Assembly: GCA_945859605.1 (NCBI GenBank)
Contig: OX243811.1
Location: 58,253,766-58,317,765 of the forward strand
Source of the DNA: Lumbricus rubellus
Lineage: Eukaryota > Annelida > Clitellata > Crassiclitellata > Lumbricidae
Reading direction: 5' to 3'
Length of the DNA: 64,000 nucleotides
Under the pieces are notes generated by a model. The model had not been told where the DNA came from. It saw only the letters and a program-made list of their open reading frames with translations, and did no database searches. Made by a program: the position numbers and the translations under genes. Numbering within the stretch: position 1 is the first letter of the stretch; each line of letters starts with the position of its first letter. Shown in pieces: positions 1 through 60,541 of this stretch.

Positions 1-2789
1 GGAGCGGTCGTTGGGTCAGTCTGCGGTGTCTTGGTCATTCTGGCCATCATCATAGCCGTAGTTTGCTATCGGTGAGTCAACTTGTTCATCAATATAGTAA
101 TTATTATATTGTTTATAACAATAGGCCTAAAGTTTGGCTACTTTCTTCATTGTATGTCTAAATTGTCTATCAAAAGCGATTGGTAACAATTTCACCTGAG
201 TGTTAGGTAACTGACAGGAAATCTAGTTGAATGCTTTGTGCTGCCACGGTTTGGTGGTAAAGACAAGACCTTTAACATGGGAGCCAGAATTTTGGATTCA
301 AATTTCCTGTGATGCCTTACACCAGGAAGCAGCTTAAGTGGGAAACTATTGAACTTTCAGTAAAATGTATCTCTGCTGTTTCATCAATCCAGCCTATTAG
401 CAAGAATCATTTTTCACAAAATCCAACTTCCATTTGACAGACACCATTGTAACCAATCCATTTCTTTTGAAGCAAGAATTATTTCCATCAGTTCAATTTC
501 TATTTGAGCAGCAATTGCTTCCATAAATCCAACTTCTACTGAAGCAATGATTTTTCACCAATCCAACCTATATAGGCTAATAATTTTAGTCAACAATATT
601 TATATCAAGTCAAGTTCTATTGAAACAAAAATTATTTAAGCAATCCCACTTCATTTTAAGCGACAATAATATTATCGCCAATCCAACTTATAGGCTAGCT
701 AAGTCCGCTCCGAAGTTGTCTGCCCCGTTTACTTGATTAGGCTACTTTGCTGTCTAAATCCAGGATTAGGTCTTGTTTACGTGTGAACCCAAGATTGCGA
801 TGTAGGCCCCCTACATACAGATAAATGCCATCGCTATTTTACTGTAGGCCTACTATACATAGATATAATATATAGCATTATCACATGTCAAATGTTTTGT
901 TTTATTTTTCAGACGAAAACGGCGTCAAACACCTCCGACAGGTTTGAAATTCTTGTACTAATACTAATTAATAGGCTAGGGGAGAGTTGCCTAGAATGGA
1001 CCGTTGCCTTAATTGGACCGCAGCCATTTAACACACTAGATGCATATTTTTGTCTCGTTTTCAAATGTTGTAATCTTGCGCGATTGAATATTGATCGTAT
1101 CGGTGCAATCAGTTTTACGGAATTCTAAACATTTAAATTTTGCTATGGTAAAAACTCTATTTCACGTAGTTTTGATCTAATTTTTGACCTACCTGACAAT
1201 GTGTGTACACAATTTAGGCATTTTTCAAAAATTGCAGTCACGTTTGTTGTAATCATAGCTAGGTTTCGTGTTTAAGCAACAATACTCGATTTTGCGCTAA
1301 GACTGACACCTGTTAAATTATAACGGTGTGAGTAGAAGTAGTCCGTGTTGCCTGAAATGGACCACATAAAGTCTCCTTAATTGGACCGATAATTTGAGTG
1401 TGGTCCATTTAAGGACACCAGTACTTGCAATGTTATTGGGTGTGGCCAACTTTACACTGCTACATGAGGTGTGTTCCTCTTTGCGAACTGCGCGTAATTC
1501 TTCTCAAATAGATTCAACTGAGTACTAATGTAAGACTTCACAATCATTTATTCCACTATAGTCTATATTCAGACTTGCACTGGTCATTGTGACAAAGTAG
1601 GCTACTTCTAATTAGTCTGCAGGCAGAGGTTATGCCACTCATGTATTCAATTGATTTCAGCTAGGCCTACTCCAATTGTGTATGATACTTTTAACTGTAT
1701 GGCTAGACACTAAGTGTTTTAAAAGCGATTCCCTTGCTTTTTGGGTAAGATTACCTTTTAAAAACGACTTTAAATGAATGTGTTCCATTCAGGGCAACTG
1801 GTCCAATCAAGGATACCATGCGGTCCATTCAAGGAAACAGTTGCCTTGATAGACTTTTTAGAGCTGTTGCTTTGTTTAGTTATTTCTCATAAATCCACGA
1901 ATATTTTCAGTCCTTTGCTTATTAATTACATAGATGAATAATCAACCAAGCATATGGCACACTTTCCTTTTAGAAATTCAGTAGCATTTATGCAGCACAC
2001 ATAAGTTTGCCTTAAGTGGTCCATTCATAGCAACTCTCCCCTACATTGAACACATCATTAAGGCCTATAATATTCCGCAGTGTTTGATACATCCTGTCAT
2101 GAGCTCTGGTGATTTAAATTAGATAGGCCTTATCTTTTATGTGCGCGTGTAATGTGCAGGCGGAGACGAAACTTCGATACAAATTAATTTTCTGCTATGA
2201 CTGGTATAAAAAAAAGCTTTTAGAGCCCAAAATAAAGCGCTAAATGAACTGATAGAGTTTTAATTGGATAACTTGTAGAAGGCCTAGTTCTAAGAATGAA
2301 CCAGCATAAGCTGACCAGAATTCTGTACTATAGTCTATCACAAGTTCACAAAATAGAGTTCTTTTGCACTAGGACATACAGTGAATGTCTAAAGCGGAAA
2401 GAGAAATGGAATTAACCTTCTTTTACTTCTTCTGCAATGGCGCTCTCTTTTACTTACCGTCTTGCCCCAAAACCTTTCAGGACTTCACGAATTTTCTTGT
2501 TTGTGGAACAATTGATTTTCTGAATTTCAGCCTTAGAATTGAAATTCAAAGCTTAGTTGATAATAAAACTGCCCCTTCATCAATGCTGAATTCAATATTA
2601 TTTAGCCTAAATAATCATATAATTCATATTGCAGAAGTTTCGAGCAGTCAACCGAATGTGAAAGGAATCGAACCTGAATTACAATATTCTTCACTTGGCC
2701 AAAGAAACGATCAGCCGAACACAGACTACGACAAATTAGACGTCAACCCATACGAGGCGGTGGACATCCAAGAGCAACCAGAATCTTAA
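1..2789 (+). CDS. Receptor gene 1, 3' end: transmembrane exon and ITAM-like tail
   Basis: Three coding exons of a gene that begins left of the window: 1-71, 913-941 and 2635-2789 (TAA at 2787-2789). All junctions are GT-AG and the phases agree (phase 2, then phase 1). Exon 1 encodes a single-pass transmembrane segment without charged residues ([15 protein letters not shown] through VVCYR). A basic stop-transfer stretch (RRKRRQTPPT) follows, then a tail of about 53 residues. The tail contains ELQYSSL, ten residues, then DYDKL, fitting the ITAM pattern (D/E)xxYxxL-x(6-12)-YxxL, and further on VNPYEAV. ITAM tails are known to be phosphorylated by Src-family kinases and to bind Syk/ZAP70-type SH2 kinases. 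The transmembrane exon is nearly identical to that of gene 2 (33422-33542), so the missing ectodomain was probably of the WSC-EGF type; that part is inference. No kinase or phosphatase domain is present before the stop. Confidence 0.8.
370..690. repeat. Degenerate array of ATCCA-type units in the gene 1 intron
   Basis: Several diverged copies of a short unit reading roughly AATCCAACTTCYATTTGA recur every 35-70 bases. The wording resembles the better preserved array at 34290-34850 in the gene 2 intron downstream of the homologous transmembrane exon, and a short remnant near 22740-22800. The intron just after the transmembrane exon (about 185-245) also matches gene 2 (about 33640-33690), so part of this may be a shared duplication rather than a separate insertion. 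Confidence 0.4.
979..2041. mobile_element. Non-autonomous inverted-repeat element flanked by TA
   Basis: Ends are inverted repeats: GGGGAGAGTTGCCTAGAATG at the left and the complement of GGGGAGAGTTGCTATGAATG at the right, each bordered by TA (977-978 and 2042-2043). This suggests a Tc1/mariner-type target. The interior carries many copies of a short word built on TGGACC or its complement GGTCCA followed by TTNAAGG, at both ends and in the middle. No credible transposase frame is present. It lies in the last intron of receptor gene 1. Confidence 0.55.
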
Positions 2790-4639: not shown

Positions 4640-7600
4640 GTCTGTAAGAAAAGCAATGCACAGAAACTAAGAGAATCACTTGTTATTAGTGCAATCACGC
4701 ACAACGTCGCACATCGAACCAATCCACAGTTGACAGAGAGTATGATGTTTAGAGTCTATGGACAAAGTGCAAGAAGCGACGTTGAACGATAGCATCCACG
4801 GCATACGACACGTCACCCCCTCCCCATACGTTCCTCAGTCCTCACTGGCCTGAACTCTGAACTTCTGAAGATGACGCACATCCGGTTATCTATCGAGTCC
4901 CCGGATATTTGTCGTCTTTTCGGTTGTTTGCAGATAGAATAGCTACCAGTAGCTATAACTGTCCAAGTCACTTGCTTCGCCACGAAGAAACATTACCTCG
5001 CTTCATGGTAGGCTTGTTGCTATTTAACGACACTATGTCATATCCAAGATGATTAGTGTCGCCCTCCTCCTTTATCCATACTTGGGCCTGGTATTGTAAA
5101 AAATACAAACAGCGGCAGTTTGAGCAAGTATAGGCCTATACACCATTTTTATACGACCCTTGAATACCGGTATCTAAAGATACCTTCCCCTGCTTGCTTT
5201 CGTTTATACAAACAAGACATTATTGAACTACGCCTCAGGTAACATGCACAAAACCATGCGGCATGGCCAGATTAATATTATTCTTCCACTTCCTGTTACT
5301 TCTGTCAGCATTCCAATTTCAAACACCATCCACCTCGACTGTATTGTCTAGTAGCCTAATCTTAAACTGATTCCGACTCTACAATGTACATGCAAATGGA
5401 TTTGGTTTTGACTCTAAGCCAGGGATTAAGCTTAGGTTGGTTACCGACACTAAGCCTTTTGAATGCTGTAGACTACGATAGTACGATTACGAATAGGCCT
5501 AGGCCTACAGTTAAGGGCGTTTGCTATTATCTGAGCAATCGACTATAACGCACCATAGGCCTACAATTATTGCTCAAGCGTAGCCTATAGCCTACACAAA
5601 ACACACACTGCTACCCTGACAGTGCTCTGACGGTAGTTGTGTTTTTCTCAAGCGTGAATTCCGATTTCCGTCATAGGACAGCTGTAGCCTGACAATTCGG
5701 CGATGCACGATGCATAATAGACCTAAATATAGTATGCATGAAAATTGAACAGCGCCTCGCAGCGCTGGAAGTTTCTTGGATTTACCCAAGTCACTGTTGA
5801 CATTACAAACGGTTTGTAGGTCTACAGGGTGACCCAGGTAGGACCATAGACCTACAGTGTGTTCAGAAAAGCTGAATTCTCAATTATTATTAAGATATTA
5901 GACCTACCCAAAAAATTTAAATGCAGTAAACTGTACACATTACAAACGGGTTGTAGGCCTCCACAATAAGGAATGAAGCTAATAATTATTGTAAACCCGT
6001 TTTAAGCAAAATTGGAGTTATGGTCTGGTATTAGCCTATGCCATGATTCTTGAAACAATATTAAACCACTATAAAACTACGACTTCTGTCACAGAATAAA
6101 ACGTACGGAACGTAGTCTAATTGGACTGTTAAAACACAAATTTACATAATGGGAAATTACTATAAGCTTAGTAATCCTGAACATATAGGTTACTAAATAA
6201 AACTTAAGAAATAAGAATGAAGGCTTATCTAAGTTTATTGTGTGATTTTTAAAGTGAAATACACCTATAATAAAAAAATGACAACTCGTATGAAGAAAAC
6301 AGAAAACGAGTAGACCTAGGTTAGGAAATCTTTTTTTAAATAAAGGCGAAAAAGGTTACAACAACTATGGTTAAGCGGTCCAAATAATCATTCATAATAA
6401 TTTACTAAGTTTGATATAAACTTGAATAATAATTTTCAAAAGTTTTAGGAATAGGCCTAATTCGTAGCACATGCTCTTTTTTTTAAAGCTCACTGTAGGC
6501 CTATAATGATTGTCATTATTCGGCCCAATGACTTTCCTCAGGCTGTAGGCCTATTCTGCGGAACTTCGGAAGCCCTCGAGTCATGCCTCATGAATAGAAA
6601 TGCACTCAGTGAATTAGCTGCGCCTAGGTCTATTCATCAGGCTTACATTCTTGAATCGTATTTTTATTAGGCAATGTGAATCATGTTTACCAGATACACG
6701 GAAGTAATGTTGAAAATTATTCTCTCCTGCTGTCGGTAACCTAACTGGCATTCGCAGGTGACCAGAAAGCGGATTTCTTCAGAGTTATGATGCAGGTTTA
6801 AAGCCCGTGAATTAGCAGCATTGAAAAATGAACGTGCATGAACATACGAGAATGGTTTTGAGATGCTACCAGAGACATTTGCTAATAAAGTTAACTTTAG
6901 TCGTCGTCTTGGCGAATATTGTGATAACTGAAGGTAGGTTTCATTGCCTCTGATTCTCATAACATTTTCACTGCGCAGTCTATCCTATAGGCCTATAATT
7001 ATGATCAATATTTCAATGCTGTTGTCGGACATTGCGAATAGCAAAAATGAAGGTTTTAGAAATAATGAGCCTTTCATGCAGCAGTTTGCGTATATGATTG
7101 CACGGCAGAGGTGTACAATTATGTGTGTTACTTTTAGCTGAATTAGAAAATCACTGGATAGATAATCATAATTATAAATAGTATGCTTTTCAATTTTCTA
7201 TATTAGGACTATAGAAAATTAAAAAGCATATTGTTTCTAATTTTGCCCCGAAGTATAACTAAGCTTATGCCGCAATATGGCGTATAGGCAACTAACAGAG
7301 GCCACGGATAATACAATTTATTATTTTTGTTATGTCGCGGCATTGTTGATGCATATGCGATAGGGGGACATTCACTTATGGGTTGGATTGACCTCAATGA
7401 GCAATTGAGCAATGGGGGGGAGAAAGCTAGTTCGATGATGAATTGGTTGTCGTCTGCTTAAAGATGGTGCTTAGGCCTACTGTAACAGAATGGAATTTCA
7501 TGAGAGTATGGTTGGAGGCGTGAACAGTCACGCGGTTCTCCGAACCAGATGGAATAGGTAGAAATGTAAGACTGTGACCAGAGTAGCGTAGTGCAAGAGA

Positions 7601-9938: not shown

Positions 9939-10022
9939 AGTAGTGTGATACAGCGGTGCACAAAACACCATTAAAAAGCCATTAAGAGAAGTCATTAAAA
10001 ACCCATTAGTTACTAAAACATG
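9939..10022 (+). repeat. Left terminal inverted repeat of the Polinton
   Basis: The first 28 bases match the inverted right end with one substitution (position 19). Homology then continues with small insertions and deletions through A-rich sequence (ATTAAAAA, TTAGTTA, TCAAAACA). The strong part is short compared with the 100-1000 bp known for classical Polintons. Confidence 0.85.
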
Positions 10023-10222
10023 TCGCGCTAATGACCTAAAAGCAATTAGGTATCAAAACACAATGGACTTACGAATCATTAAAAACCCATTAGTTACTAA
10101 AACATGTCGCCCTAAAAGCAATTAGGAATCAAAACACAATGGACTTACGAATCATTAAAAACCCATTAGGTACTAAAACATGTCACCCTAAAAGCAATTA
10201 GGAATCAAAACACAATGGACTT
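9993..10222 (+). repeat. Three subterminal tandem repeats of about 75 bases
   Basis: The unit runs from CATTAAAAACCCATTAG through AAAACATGTCGC and AAAGCAATTAGG to CAAAACACAATGGACTTA and occurs three times. Copy 1 has a small extra segment (GCTAATGA) and copy 3 has TCACC for TCGCC. The word ACACAATGGA reappears inverted near the right end (CCATTGTGTT, about 17690-17735), so the units may be subterminal recognition sites. Confidence 0.8.
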
Positions 10223-10386
10223 AATGTCAATAGGTGTATGTTCGGGTAATCTTTTGATGACTAAGCACTCCTCTGTAGTGTTCTAGGAGTTGTCATGCTT
10301 CATTGCACATTTCTTAATTACTTTCATCTAATTGTAAATATGCCTGACTAAGCACTTTTTATTTCTTCCTTCTATGCAACTAGCAA

Positions 10387-10394
10387 TATAAAAG
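10387..10394 (+). promoter_or_regulatory. TATA box ahead of the first Polinton ORF
   Basis: TATAAAAG stands 62 bases before the first ATG at 10449, in the only sizeable leader of the gene cluster. It probably drives the 5' end of the rightward gene block; a separate TATAAAG at 11424 precedes the third ORF by 40 bases. Confidence 0.55.
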
Positions 10395-10448
10395 TCTCCA
10401 GGCGTCATAAATCAATTCATTATTTTTATATTCTAAAGAACAGGTGAT

Positions 10449-10769: not shown

Positions 10770-10807
10770 AAAGAAGAGAACAACACAGTACACATTTACT
10801 TTTCATT

Positions 10808-11422: not shown

Positions 11423-11463
11423 ATATAAAGTCCCAACAGCCTCGTATATCTCATTCATTCAAA

Positions 11464-11793: not shown

Positions 11794-11794
11794 T

Positions 11795-12469: not shown

Positions 12470-12473
12470 TCGC

Positions 12474-13508: not shown

Positions 13509-13548
13509 CTTCACATTCTTGCAGTCTGACACACAAGCAGTAACGACA

Positions 13549-14409: not shown

Positions 14410-14411
14410 AA

Positions 14412-15637: not shown

Positions 15638-15638
15638 A

Positions 15639-16961: not shown

Positions 16962-16968
16962 AGAAAAG

Positions 16969-27200: not shown

Positions 27201-28075
27201 CAATTAAAAGTTTTACTAGAGACTCATTCTGAACGCTATATCCGAGTAGCATCAACCAGTGGTGTAGAGTGTAGACAAGGGGTTTAGGGGTTACAAAACC
27301 CATTGGCTTAGGAATTTTTTAAAGGTTATTTATCTACTTAAATAAGAAAAAACCCAAAATAATTGCTTGTAGGACAAGTGTTTTTCCTACTTTATTCTCT
27401 TTGTTACTTTATTCCCGTTTCCAGTTTTATTTACTGTGATAGGCCTACTGTTGGGCATAGGCGCAACCACACTATGGGACCCACGGGACGCGTCTCCCCA
27501 ACTTTTGAGTGGTCCCCTAACTTTATTATTATGGTTCTCTCCAACTTTTAGGACGTGATTCATTATGGTCCCCCAACTTTTAGGACGCGATTGCACCTAT
27601 GCTGTTGGGTTTGTGTCAGGAAGGGCATACGGCCAAGCCATAACCCCCCAACCCCATCATAAATTTCTGGCAACGCCACTGGCATCAACATTCAGCTAAT
27701 TTCAGTTGGACAAATCTCTCCTCAAACAAGTTTAGAGCGAATGAGTCACTGATTATAATGCATAGATTGCAAGCGAATATGTCAAGTAGTAAAACAAAAA
27801 TGCTGCAAGCCTATTTATATTCATGTTATGGATTGATAAACATGCAGCATTAAATACATGTCTAACATTGCGCATCAACATGATAGCGTCATTACTTATT
27901 GCTGCTGCTGCTGCACTACTCTTGCATTGTTTAAACTGATTTTCAGATATAGACGAATGTACCATGACTCCGTCAGTGTGTGGAGAAGGTTCAGTGAACT
28001 GTACAAACACCGTTGGTGGTTATAGATGTCTTTGCGGAAACGGTCATACGATTGACAACCAGACCTGTGCCATAG
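18217..28075 (+). CDS. Gene 2 ectodomain exons (WSC-EGF-WSC-EGF-EGF-EGF_CA)
   Basis: WSC 1 is split over 18217-18368 (QYVGCF to YAKLQ) and 19523-19664 ([19 protein letters not shown]). A laminin/MEGF-like EGF follows at 20492-20626 ([16 protein letters not shown]). WSC 2 is split over 23013-23179 ([11 protein letters not shown]) and 24705-24837 ([11 protein letters not shown], ending [12 protein letters not shown]). Then come 25948-26088 ([16 protein letters not shown]), 26372-26503 (a six-cysteine EGF) and 27947-28075 (DIDECTM and NTVGGYRC, a calcium-binding EGF with the D-I-D-E start and aromatic hydroxylation-type consensus). WSC modules are known carbohydrate-binding-type extracellular domains; EGF repeats form the stalk. 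The first exon starts in phase 1, so a leader exon ending in phase 1 must lie upstream, perhaps left of the Polinton. Confidence 0.88.
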
Positions 28076-43000: not shown

Positions 43001-46000
43001 ACAATAGAATCAGCTCACTTAGATCTAGGCCTACTTTCGCTCGCTGTTAACCCCTTGGAATTATATGACATTCTACATAATTTGTCTGAGTATTAACTTT
43101 TGCTATGCCTGAGATCATAACGAGAGTCTCGTCCTCATTTCATTGGATGCAGCGGGAATCTAGTTTGATAATTCACTGTTAATTTTAATCTTCTTTCACG
43201 TTCTCTGCGCTCAGGCAGGTTCGTATGTCCTATGACGCCATTTTAAATTTTAATACGTGGCGCCAATTCTTTGTTGAAAATAATCATCACTTTTGCTCTG
43301 CCCCATTATAAAATCATGATAGCATTCAATGCGTTTGTTATCTGCTATTTTTACGAAGAGTTGGATGCGGATAAGTCCACAAGCCTAGTTCGCCACTTTC
43401 GTTAAGTAGACCTAAGTGACCCTTGAAATCAATAAACAAATGCAAGTGATTTGGCAAGACATGTCCTTTCATGATTTTAGAAACAGTATGAATTTATCTA
43501 CGCTGCTTTGCTGACTGAGTTTACACTTGGAGACACTACAATCCAAGGCGAGGATCTTACTTTGGCCTACAACGCATTGCGAAAGAAGAATCCTGACACA
43601 GGAAAAACAAAATTGGAAATACAATTCAATGTAAGGAAATTTAATACGGAAAGTTATTTGCAAAGGATATTTAGTTTTTTCAGTATGACTGTCATTAAAT
43701 TAGCGCTGCTGACTCGATCACGCTAATTTCGAATAATTATAGGGGGCCTATGTTTCAAAGGAAGCAATTTGAATAATTTAGGCCTAAATGAATTATTGAA
43801 AATCTCTTGAGGAACTTCTACAATAGGTCGACCTTAATTCACGTCGCTAAACTCTAAATCAATGGTAGGCCTATCATGCAGTATGCATATTAATTTAAAT
43901 ATATATTGCTTATTATTTCTAGATGTTGGAAGAAACAAGACACCAGATCTCCGAGTATGGTAAATTTCTATAGTCATTCATGATTAAAAACCGAATATCA
44001 TCATGAACCACATTCAAGCAAGGAACAGATCTCTGTTTACATAGACCTACAAGTACTTTTTTATTATTAACGGCACGCCATCGTGACGTAGGTCCCTAGC
44101 CTACAATTACAGTTGTCTAGCTGTGATCGTTCAGTTCATCTATTTGATGCAGGACGTGAAAAATCTCTTGACATGTTCTTGTTAGTAATTATGACCGATG
44201 CTAGTTGCATCAAAGGACAAAGGTTGTACTTAACTGACCTTAAGCCAAACTTATGGAAACCATATCATTCATCTTTTAAAAGAATGTCGTGTATAAGATG
44301 ATGCAGAATATGAATGATTACCCGTTACTCATTCTTACAATTGTTCTGCAAACGAATTTTACGAAGTTCTTCTGCAATTCTGCACCCTTGGCCTAGTTGA
44401 CAATTATCAATGGCGGCGCTATCACATGTCCCGGCAAGTATATAGCCTACTCCTGAATTGCTTTACAACCTGCCAAAAAATTTTTGGAAGTCTAAATATC
44501 TTTCTTACAATTAGTTTCTCTGACCTGCTGAAGTAAGCTGACTCCAATGACCCTGGGGAAATTGTATAGCTGACAATTATTATCTACAAATAATTTTTAT
44601 TTCCCTTCTTCTCAACATCTATAATTCTATATTATAAGCCTAGAACTGAGAAATATTAAAAACTTTGTCGGTTAGCATAAAGTTATCTAGGCGTTTAAAT
44701 AACCCTTCTCAAGCGTCTCGGCGTACGTTAGGTGCAGGATATATATTGTGAGGCACTAACCATGTCTTTACATTGCAGAACCTCAGTTTCGCCTGACATC
44801 AAAATCACTTAGAAATAACAAGATTGCCCAAGTGGATGGAATACTTGTGCAGGTAAAATTTAAATCAACCGTTTATTCTTTATTATCTAATAATCTTTAT
44901 TTCTAATCGCATTTTGGTGTAGGCCTACATGTACATAGAGACATCTAGGCCACTATTAATTAAGTGAGTAAGTAGGCCTATAATCGTTTTGTACCAGCTG
45001 CAATTTGCTCTCCGGTTTACATGAATATATATAAAAAACACGAGAAGTAAAAGACAAAATTACAAGCCAAATCTGACAGCCAAACCACGGCGCCCATCCC
45101 GTGTAACTCTATCGGTATATAAATTTGGTTCAAAGCAATATTTTGTGCTTAGGTGTGCAACACAGCCCACATTATAAAAACATCTTGTGCATGTCTACAG
45201 GGTTGGAAGAAGCCTGGTTGTTACATATCAGTGAAGCAACCGTCTCTCAACACAATTCCGGACTTTTGGACAATTTGCTTAGAAAACGGATGTCGCACGA
45301 TTTTATTCGTAGACGACAAAAGGGTAAACTGAAATGTTTCGATCTACAGGCTCTTAAATGACTCGATATGAAACTATTAATTTGATAATTTTGCTTACGT
45401 AAGCTTACTGAACATAGGCTAATTATTTCTTACTAACCTAATAGCGTAGTCTTATTCAGAATAATACATGTATATCGGAATATATGTATAATTGTATACA
45501 TTACTTGCTGTAAGTTATATATTTTAATCAGACATATTGGATTCTAATTGCCTTCAAACTCATTTTAAAGTAACCGCCTGATATTTTAAATTATTGTTCA
45601 AATAGTTTACGTGAGATAGGTCTAAATGGCTACAGTTTTGTAGGTTATAGCCCTCCGAACTGTAGCCTAGGATTATACGGTACACAACTTCGATTTCCAA
45701 TTACACGGGAATGTTGTCAATGTGAGTCGTGTGTTGCGTTTTTCTTTCAGAACGAAGACGTTTCATTTCTTCCGACCAAAGAGAAACCGGTTTCAATTAG
45801 TTCGACCACTTTACTGCTGCAGAGTGAATCCGAAGAAGATTACGGATTGAGTTACAAGATTTCTCAACAGGTTGAGGCAACATATGAAAACAGAGCCATT
45901 TATGAAAACTGCGTGAGTTTGAAATCGGCGAATATAGCCTAATATGTTTCTTACATCAAAACTTTCTGTAACTTGGTGAATTTGACTATGCTCAATTGCT

Positions 46001-47643: not shown

Positions 47644-49279
47644 GCCTAGCATGTTGTGTGGAAGCATAGCTAAGGCTGAAGCGTAGTAGCCTCTCGTACT
47701 TTCATTCGAGGCTTTGAAACCAGCATTTTCTTTCGATGGATAGATAACGAGTTTTTAAAAATAATTTTGTGCTTTAAATGCCCTGTTTGACAATCATGAT
47801 CGTAAGTGACAGTTTGGCTGGTATATTATCAGCGTTATTTGTGAATCTCATTGATGTAAACTGAAGATGTGAAAATGCTCTGTTCAAAATATCAGTATGA
47901 TTTGTAGTCTAAACAGTGTTTTATACTGTTAAGTTGAAATGCATGCTTTATTCTACAGCTCGCACAGATATAATTAAATCAGAAGCACAAGATTATATTG
48001 AAATTGTTCTCCAAAGCATAATTATTTGGTTACAAAGTTTTATGCCTTCCATTTACTTGTATCAGGTGTCATGAAAAGTTTTAGAAGTAACTTAACTTTA
48101 ACTAAATTAACTTAACTTTAACTAAATTTGGGATAATTTTATAAAACTTTGAATGTTAACAGTTAGAAAACGCGTGTCGAAACATTGAAAATAGAGCTAA
48201 ACTGATAAAAGGTCAAAAAGTTTAATTTCGGTTTAAAACTACAATATTCATTTCGAACAATTCATACGTACGCTTCTCATCGATTTAATGACAGACAGCA
48301 CTGCATCAAGTTTCATAATTTCATTTTGTGACATGATGATTAGAAAGAATCACTATGAAACGCATGGCATTCCAGTTAACCGTTGCTAAGCACTGTTAGC
48401 TTAAATATGCAATAGGCAATGTTAGGCACCGTGTAAATGTGTGACTACTTAGTTTAGGTCTGAGCCAACTCCTTGATAACGAAACATAGACTACTGGTCT
48501 TAAATAAAGGGAAATGCTAACTAATTATTACTAAGCGATTGTGACGATTGCTGGATAAAACGGTATTAATAATTACTATTGTGTATTTGTAAATGCAAAT
48601 CTACCTATTCTGGAGTTAGTGTTCTGTTTACATTTGTAATTATATTGCAGTTGCGTTGATTTAAATGATTGATGCCTGATGGATAAAAACTTGGCAATAG
48701 AAACTGCTCGCGAGCTGTTTCCTTATTGTAGACCTATTATACTGTGATACACCTGCAATGTCCTGCAGACTATGAAAGTCTATTTATTCTGTCAACTGTC
48801 GACTGGATAATTCTGCTGATCATACAATACAGATTCACATAGATTATTATTTTCCACTCATTACTTTGCTACTTAATTGCAGTAGACTAATTCTAGTTAG
48901 TAGTTAGTTACGGCATCATGTACATGTAGCCTACATTAGCGCAGAAAGCAGCTTCGATTGGCATTGTTCGTTGAATAGCGCTGCATAAATGTTTAATTAC
49001 AAGTAGCCCAACAATTGCAATAGCAACACTTAAAAGTGAATTTGCGTGACATTATACTCCACAGCACACACAGTATTGCCTTTTTATAATGGTTTCATAA
49101 ATGTAGCATTGTGCGTAAGAATTTATAGTTATAGGTAACCGTGCAAACTACTTCGAAGTTAACAATCATATTACATGTAGGACTTTCAACCCCATGACTA
49201 TTTTATGCAACAGTTTTATACATGCATAAGTGTCTGTATCCATGTTGAGTTGTTGACGTGAAGCAAATACTGTGTTTAA

Positions 49280-51022: not shown

Positions 51023-52328
51023 ATGAATAAAAAGGGACTCTGCTGGATTACATGGTTCATACGAACCTCATTGGTATACTTTACACTGGACATAATATCA
51101 CACACTCGAGGTTAGTAACATTTGAGTCACGCTGAACGATTCAGATTTACAGCTTAGGTGGGTTGACTTAAGAAGAATTGAAGCAGGCTACTAAAAAGTC
51201 AATATGAATTAAAATTACGAAATCGCAATTTATAATATCTACCATAATATCGGTAGGCATACGCATAAAACACTCTCCTCCAGTGTTTTATCCAGAGGGG
51301 TCTCTGAAAGGGAGTTCTCACAGGAATGAGATTGTGAGAATTTCCCTCCAAAAATAAATAATCCAGAAATAATCCCGTGTAGGCCTATGTTTAAGTACCA
51401 TTCCCCCTAGAAAAATTATATAGGCCTACTCAACATCCCCAACTGAGAAATTCATTCGACAGCTCTTCAAGTTTCCCGCGCAAAGTATAATTCGATTGCG
51501 AAGCATTGAAGTTGCCTACTAATAAAAGTCAGTACCAATTAAACCTATGGAATTTACTGCATGTTTCTCGAAAATTGGAAAATTGTAACGAAAATACTTT
51601 CAAAAGTCATATTTGGGGTAAGCACAAAACGTATCACAGTCATGTTTATTCGAGGTAGTTTTGGCGAAAAGACTAGATAAAGGGCGCCAGAATTTTTTCT
51701 TTCAAAAGGGGTTTCTTGATGTCTGGCTGAGCAATTGTCGTCCGCCCCCCAAAACACCCGTTTTACCCACCCCAAAAACCTGAATACTTCCTTCGCAGGA
51801 AAGGCTGGGAGATCAAACACTGATTCTCTTCAAGCATTCAAATCTACGAGGGCGCTAAGTATAACTCTCCATGCATAGGCCTACAACATTAATTTTATCA
51901 TTCGATATTATATGTTATGGAGTCCTAGGTCTCAGTTCACTTCCAAGCAATTAAGCACAGTAAGTCAACTTTCGTTCTTGATGATGTAGCACAGCAAATA
52001 TAATTATTTCATTGCACCTTCCAAGATCTTTCCGGAATCATTAATCGCAGTAGGCTCGGCCTACACAATGAACAAGACAATTTAGATGCATGTTAACATA
52101 TCCATGATAGCCTACCATAAAATGCCACGTAATGCACGTCCCCTAAACTTGCCTGAAATGTATCTTCTTAAACCTGTAGGGTTGCTGCAAAACCAGTACA
52201 TTGGATGCTTTAAATTGACATCATCAAATACAGAGCACAACTCAAAGGACTATCAACTGACGATACAAAAGTGCATATCAAAATGTGTGATTCAAAGCGG
52301 AACGTACGCGGCTCTTCAGGTAAGTTCT

Positions 52329-52377
<49 letters not shown>

Positions 52378-55300
52378 AATAATTATTTATATAGCACCCC
52401 TCAAGGTACCTACTCAGTGTCGCCCCCGGCCGAGAGCAAGCGAAAGAAACAATTTTCGACAGTTTGTGAAATTGAGAACAGCTTTGGAGGTGTCGCATAG
52501 TCAAGGGAAGTCCAGGTTCTAAAACTCAGTTCATCTTGCTCGACTGTTTAAAAATATGAAACATAATTTATAGGCCTAAACATGTTAGATAACGCTAAGC
52601 CTCAAAGATGTTTATCGTTCTCAACAGGCCTATAAAATGGTCACACATGTACATGTAGGTTGAAAATTTACACCTTTAATCTCGATCCCCACTCATACGC
52701 TGTCCATTAGACTATTCAATCCGTGTCCATACAAATAAAATTTAACAGTTTACTTTATCATTTTAATTTGCTATTTTTTCACTTTTCTCATCCTTCAAGA
52801 AACTTTGTTGATGTGCATATTAACACGAACAAACTAACTAACGAATTTTTTCTTGAAAATAGAACGGGACAATTTGTCAATGTGTCGATGACTACGGTGC
52901 TCAACTATCCGATGAGTCGTGTAACATAACGTGCTCTGAAAATCAATTTGAATTTTGTGGAGGTGCAGCCATTGATGCCGCGAAATCATCAATATACTCT
53001 GTGTCTGTGGTGTATACTGGTAAAGTATTTTACACTGTATTCCTATAACTTACTTAGGCCTACACGAATTCTTGTATGATATAAAAAAGCCACGCAACTG
53101 AGATTAGGCCTATTAAGTAAGTAAGTAAGTGAGCTTATCTTTTATTATTTCATATGCAAAAGCACACTGGAATAATCTAAGTAGGCCCTATCTAACGATG
53201 TAACCATATGCTAGCTTCCTCATTTCCATTAAAAATCAACTTAAGATTTCATTCAAAATCTCTTCCTGACTTCACGGCCCCTTTCAAAGCAAGTATAGAA
53301 TCTAGGCATTATGCTTATGCATAATTATAGCATAATTTTCAAATAAATAATTAAATTAAATGAATAGACAAATCTTCATCCAAATAATTTTTATGGTAAA
53401 AGCATTCTCTAATTTTTACACTGTGTCACAACTTAATAAAATTTAATAGTTTATAATGACGACTAAAATTAAGCAATTCTTGTTTCTTTTTCTGCTGGTA
53501 GCCTACTTCTTTCACTTAATTAACGCCATGTCGTTATCATGTCTTTATCATGTTTTTAGTGTGTCCAATTGGAAACTACGGACCTGCCTGCGATGAATTG
53601 TGTCACTGTAAGCGACAGATTCCTTGCGATCGTATAATCGGACATTGTCCAGATGATTGTGATGGACAATACACCGGACCATCATGCAACACAAGTAAGC
53701 AGACACGCTTTTAAAACTCGGTTGTATCAAACCAGAAATCTGATGAATGTTTATAACACACACTAGTATGGCGCATTGGTGCTTGTATGCGTCACACATT
53801 GAATATGACATGTAAACTAAAAAAGTAGCTTTTTTAGACAAACCATGAGTGGACTCAAGGGGACTGGAATAGATGTTCAGCAAGACACTGTTAATACACA
53901 ATGTTATTATACATGTCCAGGACATTCCTTCAACTTCTTTCGGAAAGACCATGAAAATAATTAAAGATTTTACATTAGGCCTACATCCGAGTGCTTTTCA
54001 ACAGAGTTTACTTTGCCGTCGTCATTATATTTAGGCCTGCCTATAGCCTTTTTTGAATATAATTTAAACAAATAGTGTTTGGCTATTATAGCAACAACCA
54101 TATCTCAAACATAAGCTATGCCTCTATATAATTAGCCTTAATTATGCACAGTAGACGTAGATCAGCAATTAAGCATGCATGATGTAAAATTGTTAAAAGG
54201 ATGTAGGATTGTAGGTCCTATGTAGCCTACTTAGGCTATTGCTTTCCTCGCTAGCAAGAGATTTTTATTTAGGCTTGTTCAGACGCATGTTTGGCTGTGA
54301 TTTTAATTGGTTAATGAATGGAAGGAGGCTGCACAGTGCACATAGTTGGTATGGGATCGTCAACCTTAATAATTATAGGCGTTGCTCTAAGGCATATTCT
54401 GACCATGTAGGTCTAATCAAGATCATGATGATTCTGACATATTGGATTAAGATATTTATTGCGAACATGCCCATCTGGCTCCAGCAGACGTGTTTGGCCA
54501 AATGCAATACGACAGGCCCTATCTAAATTGAAGAAGCGAGGTCAGTTTACTAGGCTATAATGTAATGTTATAATGGACTAAAATGATGCTATATCAAAGC
54601 TTGAATAGGTCTATCTGAAGTAGATAAAGATTTGACATTTTGAAAGAAGACATAAAGACCTGTTTTGTAGGTCACAGCACACTGGTTGTAATCTTAGTGC
54701 TACCAATAGCCTACTCACTAACACTCGGACGTCAATGAACTAGTCTACAGTAATAATATAATAATATGAGGATTTGCAATACCCTTGCTCTTATTGCGCG
54801 GATATAAAACGTAGTTAGTTGACTTTTTTCTTTGTTTTTATTTCAACAAAGTACCGTTGCGTGAACAACACATCGGATGCTTCAAAGATAAAAGTAACAG
54901 CCATGCTTTGACGCATGTGGTATACCTCTGGATGTTGCGGAACACTATAGAAATGTGCACGAATGCTTGCACTAATGCGAGCTACTCATATGCAGGACTC
55001 CAGGTAGGGCCTACTTGGATTGTGTATCTTGGTTGAATCACAGGTAGCAGAACATCGAGGCAATAATATACATATTATTTTGTAATTAAATATGGTAGGC
55101 TATGTGTTTTGAAGTTGAAGTGTCAACCGGGCAAACAAAGTTAGACTTGTTAGATTCAGAGTCGTCTTCTTTAATTTAAAGACTTGAGAGTTTGATGAAA
55201 ACAAAGCAACAAAACAATATTAAAAACAGTTCTACCACACCAACTATTGAACAGTGTCTTCATAGTCACAGTCATTCAACACGTAGCCTAAACTAGACAG

Positions 55301-56642
55301 GAGTTACGCTGATGTAAGCTTATATTATAGTTTATGATTAAGACTGAAATTAAACAAGTTCTTTATTTGCTGGCATTTCTTGCCTTTCTTCCTCACTAGT
55401 CATCTAATTAAATGACATCAGACCAATCACGTTGCATATTTCAGTTTGCGCGGCAATGCTATTGCGGAGAAAGTTACGACAATCACGGTGTCTTGCCAGA
55501 AACGAAATGTTCGTCTAAATGCACCGGTAATAAAGACACGTTTTGTGGCGGATGGAATGCAAACACCGTTTATTCAGGTCAGTAATGTTCCATTGCTTGG
55601 AACTTATGTTGAATTCGGCTTCATGTTCATATAATTTTTTATATCGGATATAATTATAACCTATATAAATAGCTGGCCTATAGCCTAGTTATAGGCCTAT
55701 GTATGCACACAGGGATGTTTTGAAGATCTTACAAAGCGCTTGAAAAATCTGTAAAAACCTTTGGAAATCTAAAATAGGGCCTAACTTTTGCAGATTTTAT
55801 CTTAGACTAATTTAATGTGTGGACTAAAATGGTCATTTAATCAAGTAGGCTAACATCACATTCAATTGGTGACGAGAATCCAACGGTGACGCCAGTCTAA
55901 AAACCAATAGGCACGGGGGGGATACCATAAGTGGGTCATGTCAGATATAGGCCTACACCTTCAAAGAGGTGATAGTGCACTCTTAATTCACAACCTTGTT
56001 TGATTCCATCGCTTTCATGATATGATTTTGATTACCATAAGCAACATTTTTTCTTGTCATAGGCCTATAGACTATTTAAAATCTTATTTTCGCTGTCATC
56101 ATAGAATTTTTATGATTAGTATAATTATTAATTTTGCAACTACAATTAGGGCCTACCTCGTGCGTGATCGCCACGTTAGGGCTAGAGGGACTAGAGTCCG
56201 TAAGGTGCCATGCTGCTTTGACGGTCGGCAATTGTTTTCGCCAGCTCCGTCTCATCAGGAGCTGTGTTAAATTCTTGACTCTCGAGGCTAGAGCAGCCGT
56301 CGGTTCTTTCGTCATTTCTCAAGTGGACCGCTGTAGCTGAATGTGATAAGTTTTTGAAAATAACCTAAAAGCAGATCTAATAAATAATTATTCTTGTCTG
56401 CAGTCTGTCCAGTTGGTCGCTATGGAAACGGATGCAGGGAAAAATGCAATTGTCGGAACGATGCAAGATGTGTTTATCGAACCGGTTCCTGTCCGTTGTC
56501 TCAATGCAAACCTGGATGGACTGGTGACAGTTGCAATATCAGAGGTAAAACACTTCACAGAGACATGACCAGACAACAGTTACTACCATTGCTTTTATTT
56601 AAACGCACAATAAATTATTATGCTTTATGAACACCACTACTA

Positions 56643-56681
<39 letters not shown>

Positions 56682-59600
56682 CTAGAGGGTCCAAATTTGT
56701 AGATTCAGCTCAGCTAGGCTAACTACCGTTCTTTCTACCGTTTCTTTTGGGTTGGTGTAGACAAGCGTCCATAAATAACATAAAAGGTTTACTGATAACA
56801 GACCATTATTTTTTCCATATGCGTTCTTATAATTTTATCGATTCATATTGGTCAGTAAAACAAGTTTCAAATTTATATTCCTACTGAATCTTTTATGATA
56901 ATTGTTGAATTCAAAGTTAACCAAATTTAATTAGGATCTATGTGGTTTTTTATACAGATTGTACGTCATATAATGGAGACTGCAGCCAGAACGAGATATG
57001 CTCTGCAGTTGATCTGAAGTTCTCTAAGTTGTCTATGTGTCGGTGTTCGGATGGATTCCAGAGACGAAAGATATGGGAGAACTGCATTGGTAAATTGCTT
57101 TACATTAGGCTCATCTCATTATCTACTGGCTATTTCCGTAAATTGATAAACATATACAATACAAGTGTATTAATACGGTGTAGGAATGCAGTCATTTGTA
57201 TCTACTTCAGACAAAGACGAATGCTCCGAGGACCAGTCAGTGTGTGGACAAGATGCGCTCAACTGCGTTAATACAATTGGCGGTTATCAATGCTTTTGTC
57301 CTAATGGTCCGACGATGTTCAACACGGCTTGTTCGACCGGTTGGTGTTCCTTAATTAAAGTTGTAATGACATTCAATTTAATTCCGAATTTTTGCTGTCA
57401 CTGTAAATTCACAGATGACGAAATTATGATGACAAGTGTACGTAGCAATGTATGGAAGCATTTGTATGTATTGCAGATATGGATCCATGCTCCAAATTGT
57501 CGTCAGTGTGTGGACAAAATGCGCTCAACTGTACAAATACAATTGGTGGTTATCAATGCTTGTGCGCTGACGGTAACACGAGTTTCAACGCAGGCTGTGT
57601 CATCGGTGAGCAATTTTTATGCTGTCATTTTCATTGATGAAATAGATTGTTTTAAAAGGTTGGCTACAAATAACAGCTCTATCAATGCACATTTATTTAC
57701 AAATCGCATTTATTACATACAATGCCATTCATACATGTACATGATACAGTACATCGCAATCCTCTAACACTCAACAGCTATTCACCTAACAAAATGGTTT
57801 AGTGTAGGCCCTACCTCTTTTTCATTGTAATCAATCCTATCCGGACCGCCGAACTTCCTAATCCACATTGCACCAGTTCGTTCAAACGGATTCTGAAAAG
57901 ATCGCCGTCAGTTCGCTCCTCCTCCTCCTCCTCCTCCTCCTCCTCCTCCTCCTCCTCCTCCTCCTCCTCCTCTTTCGTCTGTCATTTTCACCTCACCTGC
58001 TCTTACTCTTTCTTCTTCAGCCTTCCACCGACGAATGAAAACCGAAAACTCTTCAAAAGACTCCACCCTGGTTATAGCCTACTCCTGAATCACCCCACAA
58101 CTTCATTTACCAACAATTTCTATAAAGTAGCACATTGTGCTGTCTCATCGGCTTTAGCTTCCTTGGATTCTGACCTGTACTGAGACATGACAAAAAACCT
58201 TTTTGTGGAAATAAATCTTAATTATCGCTCGTAGGCTAATGAGCGGTTCTCCGTGACACGGCCTTGTGAACGGTGAGACACTTCGGAGATTAGCTTATTG
58301 CATGTTATTAGGGCCTACTTGTGGTTAAAAGCAAATGCTCCAAAATACCGCCGATGCGTTATCGAAAATTAATGCGCTCAACTACACAGGTTATAATTAA
58401 TAGTCCTACAAGAATTTATTGGCGGTTATTATCAGTGCCCTTGCTCCAACGGTCAAACGAGGTTCCACACAGAATCTATGACTGGCAGAGGAGTTTTCTA
58501 GTCAACACTAATGGATTACTTTGAATCTGGGTAATTATTTCTAACGCATAAATTTTGCAGATTTGACAATAGGTCTACAAGTCTATAAATATGCGAATGC
58601 AACGAATTGTGTAATACATGTATGTTGCAGAGAAAGACGAACCATTTGGTGAGTAGCCAATATTTAAATCTTAATTGTTTCTCACTTATCGCCTACGCAT
58701 GATAAAACATTGCATCACAGTTCTTGCTTAAAATGACGTGTTCAAATTTTTCCTCTCCAATGTCTCGCCTATCATTGATTTATGCTGAAAAAAGTTTATT
58801 TTCCGTTTGTGTTTTTCGTGTAGTAGAATTAATGACGAAACAGAGCACAGAGTTCTTATTTCAGTGCAAATTTTCTCTTTCTGTCGGAATTAATGCTCCA
58901 GTGCCCGTTTGTGTTTTCTTATAATTTTATCGTCTTCTTTAAAATAAACATCCGTCATTGACCATGCAGGACTCTCAAGGTCTGAACAAGCGTCAAATAA
59001 GCTTATCTTAGATAAGGAATTAAATATCCATGTATAATTGTGTAGGCCTAGTAACATTTGGATTTGAGGATGTGCTAATATTTTCGCACAGTGTTTATAG
59101 TGGCTTTATTCAGCACAGTTTTAGACAAGAAGTTGCAATGTGCGTGCATCTGCTATCTAGAATTTCGACCTTGCTGTTGTGATTTGCTACTTTACAGTTA
59201 TTTTACAATTTTGTGAAAGGTATTGAAGCAATGGAACCGAGCTACACGTGGATAATTGTGGGAACAGCTGGAGGAGTTTTACTTTGTGTGATTGCTATAA
59301 TAGGCCTACTTGCTGTCGGCCTAGTAGTTCGTATACAAAGGTAAATATTCTATGTGTCAAAATTTATCAAGGAAGTGTTTAAATGATGGTCTAACATTTC
59401 TGTAAGATACTGAACACAACATTTTTTTTGTTAAAATTATCAAGACACAGTTCAACTATTGTATAGGCTACAGCCTACACATATCGCACATCTTAGCCTA
59501 CTATAGCATCGGTTGGCCTACACTTGGCATGACATAATTATCAGCAAGGCGCCTTTGTGCCGTCTTTCCTTAAAGAGGTTGCAGATTACAAAACATGGAT

Positions 59601-60541
59601 CATTTAACATTTCTTCTAAATTCCAATTCTTCATACGGAGTAGAAGATCTATCAGAAACTATAAAATAGAACGTGAGGAAAGAAATTATTATTACTCTGC
59701 GGTGTAGGCTGTCACTTGGTCAGCGTCTATGACAACGTAAACTCCGAATAATCGAATATTGATTAATTAATTCTAGTAATAAAATAGGCTATCAATTGAA
59801 TGATTAAACACATTTTGTGTGCATGATATGTTTCAGACGCAAGCAACGAAATATTCCGCCAACTTCTCCAGGTAACGTTATTAATAATTCACCTGCCGTT
59901 CAAAGCGAATAAAGTATTGTTTTCGTAAATGGGTTAAATTGCTATGGGCCAGTTGGACACTTAAGACTATTTCAACTATAATAATTGTTCTAGTGATTTA
60001 TCACTGGTGGGTAGAATTTTTGTATAAGATGTGTGCAATCTAAAGTATGCTAATAATGGGTCTGTTTGACACTTACAGTAGACGTTTGCTAGTTGCTTAG
60101 GCCTATTCCTTTATGAACAGACATAGGCCTACATGTAACGCACGAAATCCGTGAAATACGCTTTAATCTGAAATAATTATGACGTGCACTAATTTTTAAT
60201 GTGTCTAATGACTGTAAACTGATTTTAAAAATACCTGATATAGCCTAATCTTACCATCTTTACCGCACCTCTGAGTTATAATTCTTGATTCACCTTTGAT
60301 GTAGGCCTTTAAAACGATAATAGACTATTAGGCTATGCAAGTTTATTGAAAGTTTTGCTTCTTCAACATAACTTCAGACTCGTTTGAATTTCTGCTGAAA
60401 ATAAGTTTTCGCATTTTGCTGTTTTCAGAAAAAACGTATTGCGCTGCAACTATAATTGATGGGAGAACATATTACGAAACACTCGATGTGAACGCCTATA
60501 ATGCAGAAATATACGACCAGATACAAGAGCACGACGTATGA
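51023..60541 (+). CDS. Receptor gene 3: WSC/EGF receptor with ITAM-like tail (complete)
   Basis: Fourteen coding exons join in phase: 51023-51110, 52180-52319, 52863-53019, 53560-53694, 54852-55003, 55445-55577, 56404-56544, 56958-57089, 57211-57339, 57477-57605, 58631-58648, 59220-59340, 59837-59871, 60429-60541 (TGA). They total 1,623 nt, or 540 residues. Order: leader peptide (ends THTR), WSC (QYIGCF), EGF (CPIGNYGPACDELCHC), WSC (QHIGCF), EGF (CPVGRYGNGCREKCNC), EGF, two EGF_CA, short stalk, one membrane helix (WIIVGTAGGVLLCVI onward), basic anchor and a tail with YETL-x9-YDQI. Type I plasma-membrane receptor; the tail predicts Src/Syk-type signalling. The start is the only ATG giving a hydrophobic leader with a phase-1 donor that fits exon 2. 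Confidence 0.88.
52330..52376. repeat. (CAAT)n simple repeat
   Basis: A pure TCAA/CAAT tetranucleotide run of about 47 bases starts ten bases into the intron after gene 3 exon 2. Confidence 0.95.
52380..52440 (-). mobile_element. SINE 3' fragment, inverted
   Basis: TATATAGCACCCCTCAAGG and CTACTCAG match the complement of the tail of the SINE at 36617-36840. The rest is missing, and the tetranucleotide repeat adjoins it. Confidence 0.5.
56648..56679. repeat. (AT)n simple repeat
   Basis: A pure alternating AT run of about 32 bases in an intron of gene 3. Confidence 0.95.
57915..57971. repeat. (CTC)n simple repeat
   Basis: About 18 uninterrupted CTC units lie in the intron between gene 3 exons 57605 and 58631. 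Confidence 0.95.
58326..58500 (+). pseudogene. Decayed third calcium-binding EGF exon of gene 3
   Basis: It matches exon 57477-57605 in pieces: ATGCTCCAAA, then AATGCGCTCAACTACACA, an interruption of about 25 bases, then ATTGGCGGTTATTATCAGTGC and AACGGTCAAACGA. The frame is shifted and some cysteines are lost. Because EGF_CA exons are phase 1-1, skipping it leaves the reading frame of gene 3 intact. Confidence 0.7.
59220..60541 (+). CDS. Gene 3 membrane exon and ITAM-like tail exons
   Basis: Exon 59220-59340 (121 nt, the same length as in gene 2) encodes the stalk end and the membrane helix. 59837-59871 gives RRKQRNIPPTSP, similar to RRKRRQTPPT of gene 1. 60429-60541 gives the tail with YYETL, nine residues, YDQI and then QEHDV. 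Intron positions and phases equal those of gene 1 (phase 2 then phase 1), so the three-exon membrane-tail cassette is shared. An extra Tyr (NAYNAE) lies between the two motif tyrosines. Confidence 0.85.

What the first reader, a model, noticed from the sequence alone, without database searches (positions are those of the whole stretch)
1..60541. Candidate paired receptor cluster: same membrane module, opposite signalling tails
Seen: three same-strand neighbouring genes share intron phases around the membrane exon. Gene 1 and gene 3 end in short tails with ITAM-like pairs of tyrosines, while gene 2 ends in a tandem tyrosine phosphatase. Known: in vertebrate immune and phagocytic systems, paired receptors with near-identical outer parts and activating versus inhibitory tails are a recurrent design, but inhibition usually uses ITIMs that recruit SHP phosphatases. 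Inference: here the phosphatase itself would be built into the inhibitory partner. I know of no described WSC-EGF system of this kind.
Basis: partly seen in the sequence, partly recalled or inferred. Interest (0 to 1): 0.88.

Follow-up and report, generated by a model that had tools for sequence, protein, structure and literature searches.

The report
Paired receptors with built-in phosphatase arm
An animal genome carries a long row of neighbouring cell-surface receptor genes that share the same outer design but end either in short tyrosine tails that look like "go" signals or in an enzyme that could erase them, a layout known from vertebrate immune "paired receptors" but with the brake built into the receptor itself.

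Summary
Three same-strand genes splice in frame: gene 1 (partial) and gene 3 end in short tails with two spaced YxxL/I motifs; gene 2 is a WSC-EGF receptor with a tandem tyrosine phosphatase. It is separated from gene 1's membrane exon by 5,000 N. Neighbours follow suit: gene 0 (two-tyrosine tail), gene 4 (phosphatase), gene 5 (two-tyrosine tail). Outer parts group as {0,1,2} and {3,4}; the tree tested with both phosphatase genes together is rejected (p-AU 1.2e-5). The window lies near one end of a ~1.6 Mb one-strand array. Limits: signalling is inferred; gene 2's active domain has WED instead of WPD; gene 0 and 1 tails also fit an ITIM; one of two further members sought showed neither tail. 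Verdict: a real paired-receptor layout, new variant of a known kind; that the phosphatase arm inhibits is unproven.

The parts
1..71 (+). Gene 1, visible part of membrane exon ([24 protein letters not shown])
   Evidence: 3 of 71 bases differ from gene 2, all synonymous; 5,000 N lie directly upstream
913..941 (+). Gene 1 juxtamembrane exon (RRKRRQTPPT), phase 2->1
2635..2789 (+). Gene 1 tail exon with YSSL-x10-YDKL, stop at 2789
6852..6933 (+). Gene 2 signal-peptide exon
   Evidence: signal peptide judged by eye
18217..19664 (+). Gene 2 WSC domain 1 (exons 18217-18368, 19523-19664)
20492..20626 (+). Gene 2 EGF-like exon
   Evidence: cysteine pattern read from sequence
23013..24837 (+). Gene 2 WSC domain 2 (exons 23013-23179, 24705-24837)
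25948..28075 (+). Gene 2 three EGF-like exons (25948-26088, 26372-26503, 27947-28075; the last EGF_CA)
33422..33542 (+). Gene 2 membrane exon, phase 1->2
36373..37240 (+). Gene 2 juxtamembrane exons (36373-36455, 37110-37240; holds DVYYVPI)
37956..43630 (+). Gene 2 PTP domain 1 (exons 13-20); loop SWED in exon 42150-42295; [10 protein letters not shown] split over 42295/42795
43923..47289 (+). Gene 2 PTP domain 2 (exons 21-26), active-site motif degenerate (VSSSDYELTG, no Cys, no Arg; read from sequence)
47486..47686 (+). Gene 2 likely last exon ([15 protein letters not shown]..., stop) if exon 26 is spliced at 47286
   Evidence: gene 4 has a GTAAGT donor at the corresponding place
51023..51110 (+). 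Gene 3 signal-peptide exon
   Evidence: signal peptide judged by eye
52180..53019 (+). Gene 3 WSC domain 1 (2 exons)
53560..53694 (+). Gene 3 EGF-like exon
   Evidence: cysteine pattern read from sequence
54852..55577 (+). Gene 3 WSC domain 2 (2 exons)
56404..57605 (+). Gene 3 four EGF-like exons
58631..58648 (+). Gene 3 possible 18-nt linker exon (weakest exon of the model)
59220..59340 (+). Gene 3 membrane exon, phase 1->2
59837..59871 (+). Gene 3 juxtamembrane exon (RKQRNIPPTSP), phase 2->1
60429..60541 (+). Gene 3 tail exon with YETL-x9-YDQI and stop

Best explanation
The window lies near one end of a large tandem array of single-pass receptors with one outer design (signal peptide, WSC, EGF, WSC, EGF, EGF, EGF-Ca). 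One set ends in a short tail with two YxxL/I motifs 9-11 residues apart (ITAM-like); the other ends in a receptor tyrosine phosphatase whose domain 1 keeps the catalytic Cys and Arg and whose domain 2 is degenerate. Most likely both see the same or related ligands. Src-family kinases would phosphorylate the two-tyrosine tails, which would recruit a tandem-SH2 kinase and trigger phagocytosis or another effector response. The phosphatase partner, brought to the same place by the shared ectodomain and perhaps by the shared GxxxG-type membrane helix, would remove those phosphates, doing in one molecule what an ITIM receptor plus SHP does in vertebrates. Shown: gene structure, ectodomain identity, tail classes, one-strand array. 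Inferred: ligand sharing, phosphorylation, direction of the signal, cell type.
For: Gene 1-gene 2 ectodomains 79.2% identical (259/327; dN 0.113, dS 0.337), gene 0-gene 2 75.2%, versus 51.4% for gene 2-gene 3. Ectodomain clades {g0,g1,g2} and {g3,g4} (bootstrap 100), each with both tail kinds; the one tree tested with the two phosphatase genes together is rejected, p-AU 1.2e-5 protein, 7.3e-5 DNA, although the PTP domains of g2 and g4 group together, bootstrap 99, 50% identical (several other sequences there were badly aligned). Two-tyrosine tails in g0, g1, g3, g5, g7; g0/g1 tail exons differ in 10 of 50 codons (11 of 150 bases, both tyrosine motifs kept) while the 3' flank aligns at 76-79%. 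An expectation that guided the choice of the next stretch (a two-tyrosine gene after another phosphatase gene; not noted beforehand) held at 58.80-58.81 Mb. 50 of the 84 WSC matches found in the genome lie at C1:58.22-59.86 Mb, all + strand, with 12 listed PTP matches to the exon that follows the catalytic Cys, all + strand (some could be second domains). 10 of these 12 have a WSC match within 60 kb upstream with no other of the 12 between. Outside this genome: P0001 (WSC-EGF-PTP start) and P0137 (WSC-EGF, YAGL-x11-YTAL, no PTP in Pfam).
Against: Gene 2 domain 1 reads WED where the 241 active-site PTP motifs in the 221 listed database proteins read WPD (124) or WPE (117), so gene 2 may be weak or a trap; gene 4 reads WPD. 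The g0 and g1 tails contain LQYSSL, an ITIM consensus. The second expectation failed: the WSC-EGF gene at 59.19-59.21 Mb showed neither an ITAM-like tail nor a PTP before the next gene. Clade B is loose (g3-g4 56.4%). RPTPs can also activate Src kinases (CD45; recalled), so the sign of the effect is open. No transcript, expression or ligand data for this genome. Gene 1 crosses 5,000 N. The juxtamembrane exon of gene 0 was not found by a simple pattern, and genes 0, 4, 5 and 7 were not modelled to all splice sites.
Confidence: 0.6

Rival explanations
1. Ordinary tandem expansion of an adhesion/scavenger-type receptor family in which tails were shuffled, without a functional pairing: the members serve different ligands or cells and the phosphatase does not act on the two-tyrosine tails.
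For: The two ectodomain clades are about 50% identical to each other and g3-g4 only 56.4%; at least one member has a third tail kind; WSC and PTP exon matches also cluster elsewhere in the genome.
Against: g1 and g0 carry two-tyrosine tails on ectodomains 79.2% and 75.2% identical to phosphatase gene 2, and both tail kinds recur in the looser second clade; g0/g1 tails are better conserved than their flanks.
Confidence: 0.25
2. The phosphatase members are positive regulators, like CD45: they dephosphorylate the inhibitory site of Src-family kinases and license the two-tyrosine tails, so both arms promote signalling.
For: CD45 does this in T cells (recalled). CD45 is also listed as the 'eraser' of Fc-receptor and T-cell-receptor phosphorylation (PMC8092387, passages), so both signs are known for one RPTP.
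Against: The shared ectodomain would co-recruit enzyme and tail at the same ligand, which fits direct tail dephosphorylation better (inference only).
Confidence: 0.15
3. Gene 2 is a pseudophosphatase or substrate trap: the WED loop removes most catalysis, and it holds phosphorylated tails or acts as a decoy receptor.
For: WED in 0 of 241 other motifs; domain 2 lacks Cys and Arg (sequence).
Against: Catalytic Cys and Arg, the loop Asp and the Q-loop Gln are kept in domain 1 (alignments, read by eye); gene 4 keeps WPD.
Confidence: 0.2

Closest known systems
Vertebrate paired receptors (CEACAM1/CEACAM3, Siglec-11/16, FcR-like, CD300)
   Same: Similar outer parts and opposite kinds of tail, often in gene clusters (starts of abstracts in the listings: PMC3533184, PMC5112662, PMC2413239, PMC5701461, PMC2803305).
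Draper / MEGF10 / CED-1 engulfment receptors
   Same: EGF-rich single-pass receptors with ITAM-like tails; Draper-II is a splice form with an ITIM bound by the phosphatase Corkscrew (PMC8092387, passages).
   Different: No EMI domain among the Pfam hits here, WSC domains instead, no NPxY in the 6 tails looked at, opposite arms are separate genes, phosphatase is built in.
Botryllus fester co-receptors (FcoR)
   Same: Invertebrate receptor family in clusters with ITIM or hemITAM motifs; some loci swap the motif by splicing (PMC12065747, passages).
   Different: Ig/sushi ectodomains, sign changed by motif choice or splicing; CD45-like phosphatases are mentioned as separate proteins in the passages seen.
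EGF-ectodomain receptor tyrosine phosphatase of a mollusc (Solemya velum P0018)
   Same: EGF-like ectodomain, membrane helix, several PTPs, a juxtamembrane YYNLP motif similar to gene 2's YYVPI (sequence, compared by eye).
   Different: No WSC domain in its Pfam list, three PTP domains by eye, no partner examined.
P0001 and P0137 (unnamed WSC-EGF proteins, 'jgi' and 'lgn' sources)
   Same: Same ectodomain order; one runs into a PTP domain, the other ends in YxxL-x11-YxxL.
   Different: Species not named; P0001 leaves the PTP early, at a place matching a gene 2 exon end, perhaps a retained intron; P0137 has an extra WSC-EGF and a long tail of 329 residues.

Membership tests
Paired receptors | Very similar extracellular parts on both arms | tested here: met
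   g1-g2 79.2% (259/327), g0-g2 75.2% (242/322); g3-g4 only 56.4%
Paired receptors | Opposite signalling tails (activating versus inhibitory) | tested here: inconclusive
   Two tail classes at sequence level; sign of signal not testable; g0/g1 tails also fit ITIM
Paired receptors | Genes in one cluster | tested here: met
   Six neighbours g0-g5 on one strand, array to about 59.88 Mb
Paired receptors | Shared ligand or co-expression | not testable with these tools
   No expression or binding data
ITAM-bearing receptors | Two YxxL/I motifs 6-12 residues apart in the tail | tested here: met
   5 of the 6 array members without PTP whose tails were sought (g0, g1, g3, g5, g7; spacing 9-10); not in the member at 59.21 Mb. 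The tails of g5, g7 and P0137 were picked out by this pattern
ITAM-bearing receptors | Phosphorylation by Src kinase and binding of a tandem-SH2 kinase | not testable with these tools
   Biochemistry needed
ITIM-bearing receptors | [SIVL]xYxx[ILV] | tested here: met
   LQYSSL in g0 and g1; two matches in g7; none in g3, g5, P0137
Tandem receptor tyrosine phosphatases | Two PTP domains after one membrane helix | tested here: met
   Gene 2: Pfam two stretches, RPTP alpha and LAR-type relatives in PDB
Tandem receptor tyrosine phosphatases | Active domain 1 with HCx5R and WPD | tested here: inconclusive
   [10 protein letters not shown] present, WPD is WED in gene 2; gene 4 has WPD
Draper/MEGF10/CED-1 | EMI domain plus EGF repeats | tested here: not met
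   No EMI family among Pfam hits at E up to 1 for genes 2 and 3; that EMI defines the family is recalled
Draper/MEGF10/CED-1 | NPxY motif in the tail | tested here: not met
   0 of 6 tails; of P0137 only the last 63 residues were given

The most novel reading that the evidence does not exclude
A megabase array of WSC-EGF paired receptors in an invertebrate in which the inhibitory arm is a transmembrane phosphatase with the same ectodomain, and in which ectodomains are exchanged or homogenised between activating and phosphatase genes, so that each recognition type is available with both signs.
Probability: 0.5. Interest if true: 0.88.

Novelty: new variant of a known kind. Interest (0 to 1): 0.74.

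Why it matters
It would show that the paired-receptor layout arose on a non-Ig ectodomain, outside vertebrates if the source is the invertebrate it appears to be, with enzyme and recognition fused in one protein instead of ITIM plus SHP. It offers a natural test of how co-recruiting a phosphatase through the ectodomain silences a two-tyrosine receptor, which bears on phagocytosis control and on engineered receptors. My ten paper searches (open-access library, listings of at most 20 papers each) listed no paper on a WSC-EGF receptor phosphatase or such a pair. I recall sea urchin phosphatase surveys, not seen here, so a WSC-type RPTP may be in print.

Tried and rejected
Considered and rejected: (1) gene 1 as a receptor with an unrelated ectodomain: rejected, upstream exons found. 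(2) ITAM-like motif as chance: the bare pattern is common in DNA (3.0 per 10 kb in + frames), but exon context, homology of the g1/g3 tails and g0/g1 conservation argue against chance; the even spacing (9-11) is weaker evidence, since g5, g7 and P0137 were picked by the pattern. (3) Grouping of genes by tail type: rejected for the tree tested; the earlier four-protein test gave only p-AU 0.021. (4) Order within g0, g1, g2 is unresolved. (5) Expectation of a two-tyrosine gene downstream of the phosphatase gene at 59.177 Mb: failed. (6) Pfam ErbB/EphA2 membrane hits for gene 2 are far below cut-off and not used. (7) Structure prediction was not run: the spliced proteins are not read letter for letter from the window. 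(8) Species was not identified; the coelomocyte idea is untested. One starfish coelomocyte proteome lists an RPTP F-like protein and does not mention WSC (PMC13409769, passages).

Rows dropped: for the ectodomain tree only exons e2-e8 were used, because g1's e9 was not found. In the PTP tree the gene 4 piece lacks one small exon, and L001-L008 were cut crudely and several aligned badly, so only the g2/g4 grouping is used. One search was a script that failed; one search replaced it.


Full report
What was checked. I read the window except 12001-17399 and 28601-29400, both inside mobile elements, listed its open frames, and built exon models whose visible splice sites are GT-AG and whose frames stay open. 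Gene 1 shows its membrane exon (1-71), a juxtamembrane exon (913-941) and a tail exon (2635-2789). Gene 2 runs from a signal-peptide exon at 6852 through WSC, EGF, WSC, EGF, EGF, EGF-Ca, membrane and juxtamembrane exons into two PTP domains, ending at 47289 as modelled. A last exon at 47486-47686 is more likely, because gene 4 has a clear donor at the corresponding point. Gene 3 (51023-60541) repeats the ectodomain with one extra EGF. Pfam finds two WSC stretches and EGF_CA in both, and two Y_phosphatase stretches in gene 2. Phases match at every corresponding exon from signal peptide to juxtamembrane, and six of the ten exons from signal peptide to membrane have equal lengths. The g2-g3 ectodomain has dN 0.41 against a saturated dS of 2.27 (1.42 by a second method), as expected of constrained genes.

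Membrane exon and tails. Gene 1 and gene 2 membrane exons differ at 3 of 71 bases, all silent; window 1-250, exon plus the start of the intron, aligns with gene 2 at 77%. The helix has a GxxxGxxxG pattern, read by eye also in g0, g5 and g7 and, as small-xxx-small, in P0001; I infer, without a test, that it may favour association of the two arms. Gene 1 and gene 3 tails align (TDYDKLDVNPYEA with TYYETLDVNAYNA; 4 of 5,000 shuffles as good) and hold YxxL/I pairs that shuffles give in 104 and 688 of 20,000 cases.

The test outside the window. The window lies at G000:C1:58253766-58317765 in an unnamed 787 Mb assembly. Upstream stretches show seven exons at window coordinates -19695 to -9181 that match gene 2's exons at 72-90% identity, 259 of 327 residues in all (79.2%). 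Between them and gene 1's membrane exon lie 5,000 N at -4999 to 0, so the join is inferred from order, strand and similarity. Further upstream, gene 0 has WSC-EGF exons, a membrane exon and a tail exon 88% identical to gene 1's; its juxtamembrane exon was not found by a simple pattern. The g0 and g1 tail exons differ in 10 of 50 codons (4 silent, 6 not; 11 of 150 bases), with both tyrosine motifs kept, while the 3' flank aligns at 76-79%.

Neighbours. Gene 4 (window coordinates 110629-148010) has WSC-EGF exons, then PTP exons with an ordinary WPD loop. Gene 5 (166980 to about 178020) has the same ectodomain order and a tail with YETL-x10-YSTI (21 of 20,000 shuffles). So the order is two-tyrosine, two-tyrosine, phosphatase, two-tyrosine, phosphatase, two-tyrosine. 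I then chose two further stretches in the expectation, not noted beforehand, of a two-tyrosine gene after a phosphatase gene. Downstream of the PTP match at 58.787 Mb a WSC-EGF gene with YDTL-x10-YTEL was found (79 of 20,000 shuffles; start of its tail exon not fixed). Downstream of the one at 59.177 Mb a WSC-EGF gene was found with neither tail before the next gene. One of two held; the array also contains something else.

Ectodomain history. With five genes, ectodomains form {g0, g1, g2} and {g3, g4} with bootstrap 100; the one tree tested with the two phosphatase genes together is rejected (p-AU 1.2e-5 protein, 7.3e-5 DNA). The PTP domains of g2 and g4 group together against other PTPs (bootstrap 99, with a rough alignment). 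Tail type and ectodomain thus seem to have different histories: exchange of parts or homogenisation of ectodomains, as reported for Siglec-11/16 (PMC5701461, start of abstract in the listing). Inside the first clade the order is not resolved, and the second clade is loose (56.4%).

Size of the array. Of 84 WSC matches found in the genome, 50 lie between 58.22 and 59.86 Mb of C1, all on the + strand. The PTP search lists 12 matches there to the exon that follows the catalytic Cys, all +; some could be second domains, one has stops in the matched stretch, and not every match of that search was listed. Ten of the 12 have a WSC match within 60 kb upstream with no other of the 12 between. Both searches score only part of their candidates (150 of 232 and 150 of 345), so counts are lower bounds. 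Tail kinds were seen only for g0-g5, g7 and the member at 59.21 Mb; the tail search of the whole genome did not complete.

Other species. P0001 (686 aa, on a 2,892-base contig) joins an N-terminal hydrophobic stretch, WSC-EGF modules, membrane helix and the first 40 residues of a PTP; it leaves the PTP at a place matching the end of gene 2's exon 14, as a retained intron would (boundary by eye). P0137 (961 aa) has the WSC-EGF modules, no PTP in Pfam and a tail with YAGL-x11-YTAL (36 of 20,000 shuffles). Both ectodomains are about 44-51% identical to genes 2 and 3. Neither source is named.

Catalysis. In gene 2 domain 1 the catalytic Cys and Arg, the loop Asp and the Q-loop Gln are kept, but the loop reads WED. 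Among 241 active-site PTP motifs in the 221 database proteins listed by the three searches, 124 read WPD, 117 WPE and none WED. Domain 2 has lost Cys and Arg. Gene 4 keeps WPD. The simple view that gene 2 is a strong phosphatase is therefore uncertain.

Mechanism. I think it most likely (0.6) that two-tyrosine members activate through Src and tandem-SH2 kinases, and that phosphatase members, drawn to the same ligand by the shared ectodomain, erase the signal. Rivals are mere tail shuffling without pairing, a CD45-like positive role, and gene 2 as a trap. The g0/g1 tails also fit an ITIM (LQYSSL), so even their sign is not settled.

Known systems. The layout works like vertebrate paired receptors (PMC3533184, PMC5112662, PMC2413239: starts of abstracts in listings), like Draper-I/II with Corkscrew (PMC8092387, passages), and like Botryllus FcoR receptors (PMC12065747, passages). 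It differs in the WSC-EGF ectodomain and the built-in phosphatase. It is not a Draper/MEGF10 member by two tests (no EMI; no NPxY). Ten searches of the open-access library listed no paper on such a system. I recall, without a source here, that sea urchin surveys described novel RPTPs, so the RPTP half may have been listed before.

Noticed in passing
window 9951-17830 (approximate): Polinton/Maverick-like element inside gene 2's first intron: open frames matching an A32-type ATPase (at the cut-off), an integrase with chromodomain and an adenovirus-type C5 protease; ends judged by eye from inverted end repeats.
   Followed up: partly
window 28125-32070 (approximate): LTR-type element in a gene 2 intron: direct repeats at about 28.13 and 31.68 kb (by eye) and an 888-residue frame with no Pfam match.
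   Followed up: partly
window 22163-22216, 33216-33351, 58418-58483: Partial copies of EGF exons inside introns of genes 2 and 3, signs of exon gain and loss (tblastn).
   Followed up: partly
window 61200-63420, - strand: Exons that look like a cytochrome P450 gene (by eye, not searched).
   Followed up: no
G000 C1, C4, C5, C16 (L001-L008): PTP domains in single open frames of 884-948 residues, four of them in a 68 kb row at C5:9.51-9.58 Mb: RPTP genes without introns in that part, perhaps retrocopies.
   Followed up: no
G000:C1:6.75-7.10 Mb, C4:52.52-52.69 Mb, C9:13.24-13.30 Mb: Other clusters of WSC exon matches, on mixed strands in C1 and C4.
   Followed up: no
C1:59187747-59211100 (L028-L030): WSC-EGF gene with a further tail kind after the helix STATIGIILGTLLAISLLINVILIVSR; tail not identified.
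   Followed up: partly
window coordinates -39239 to -36493 (L021): Three extra EGF exons just upstream of gene 0's WSC exons with no membrane or tail exon detected between: gene 0 may have a longer, doubled ectodomain.
   Followed up: partly
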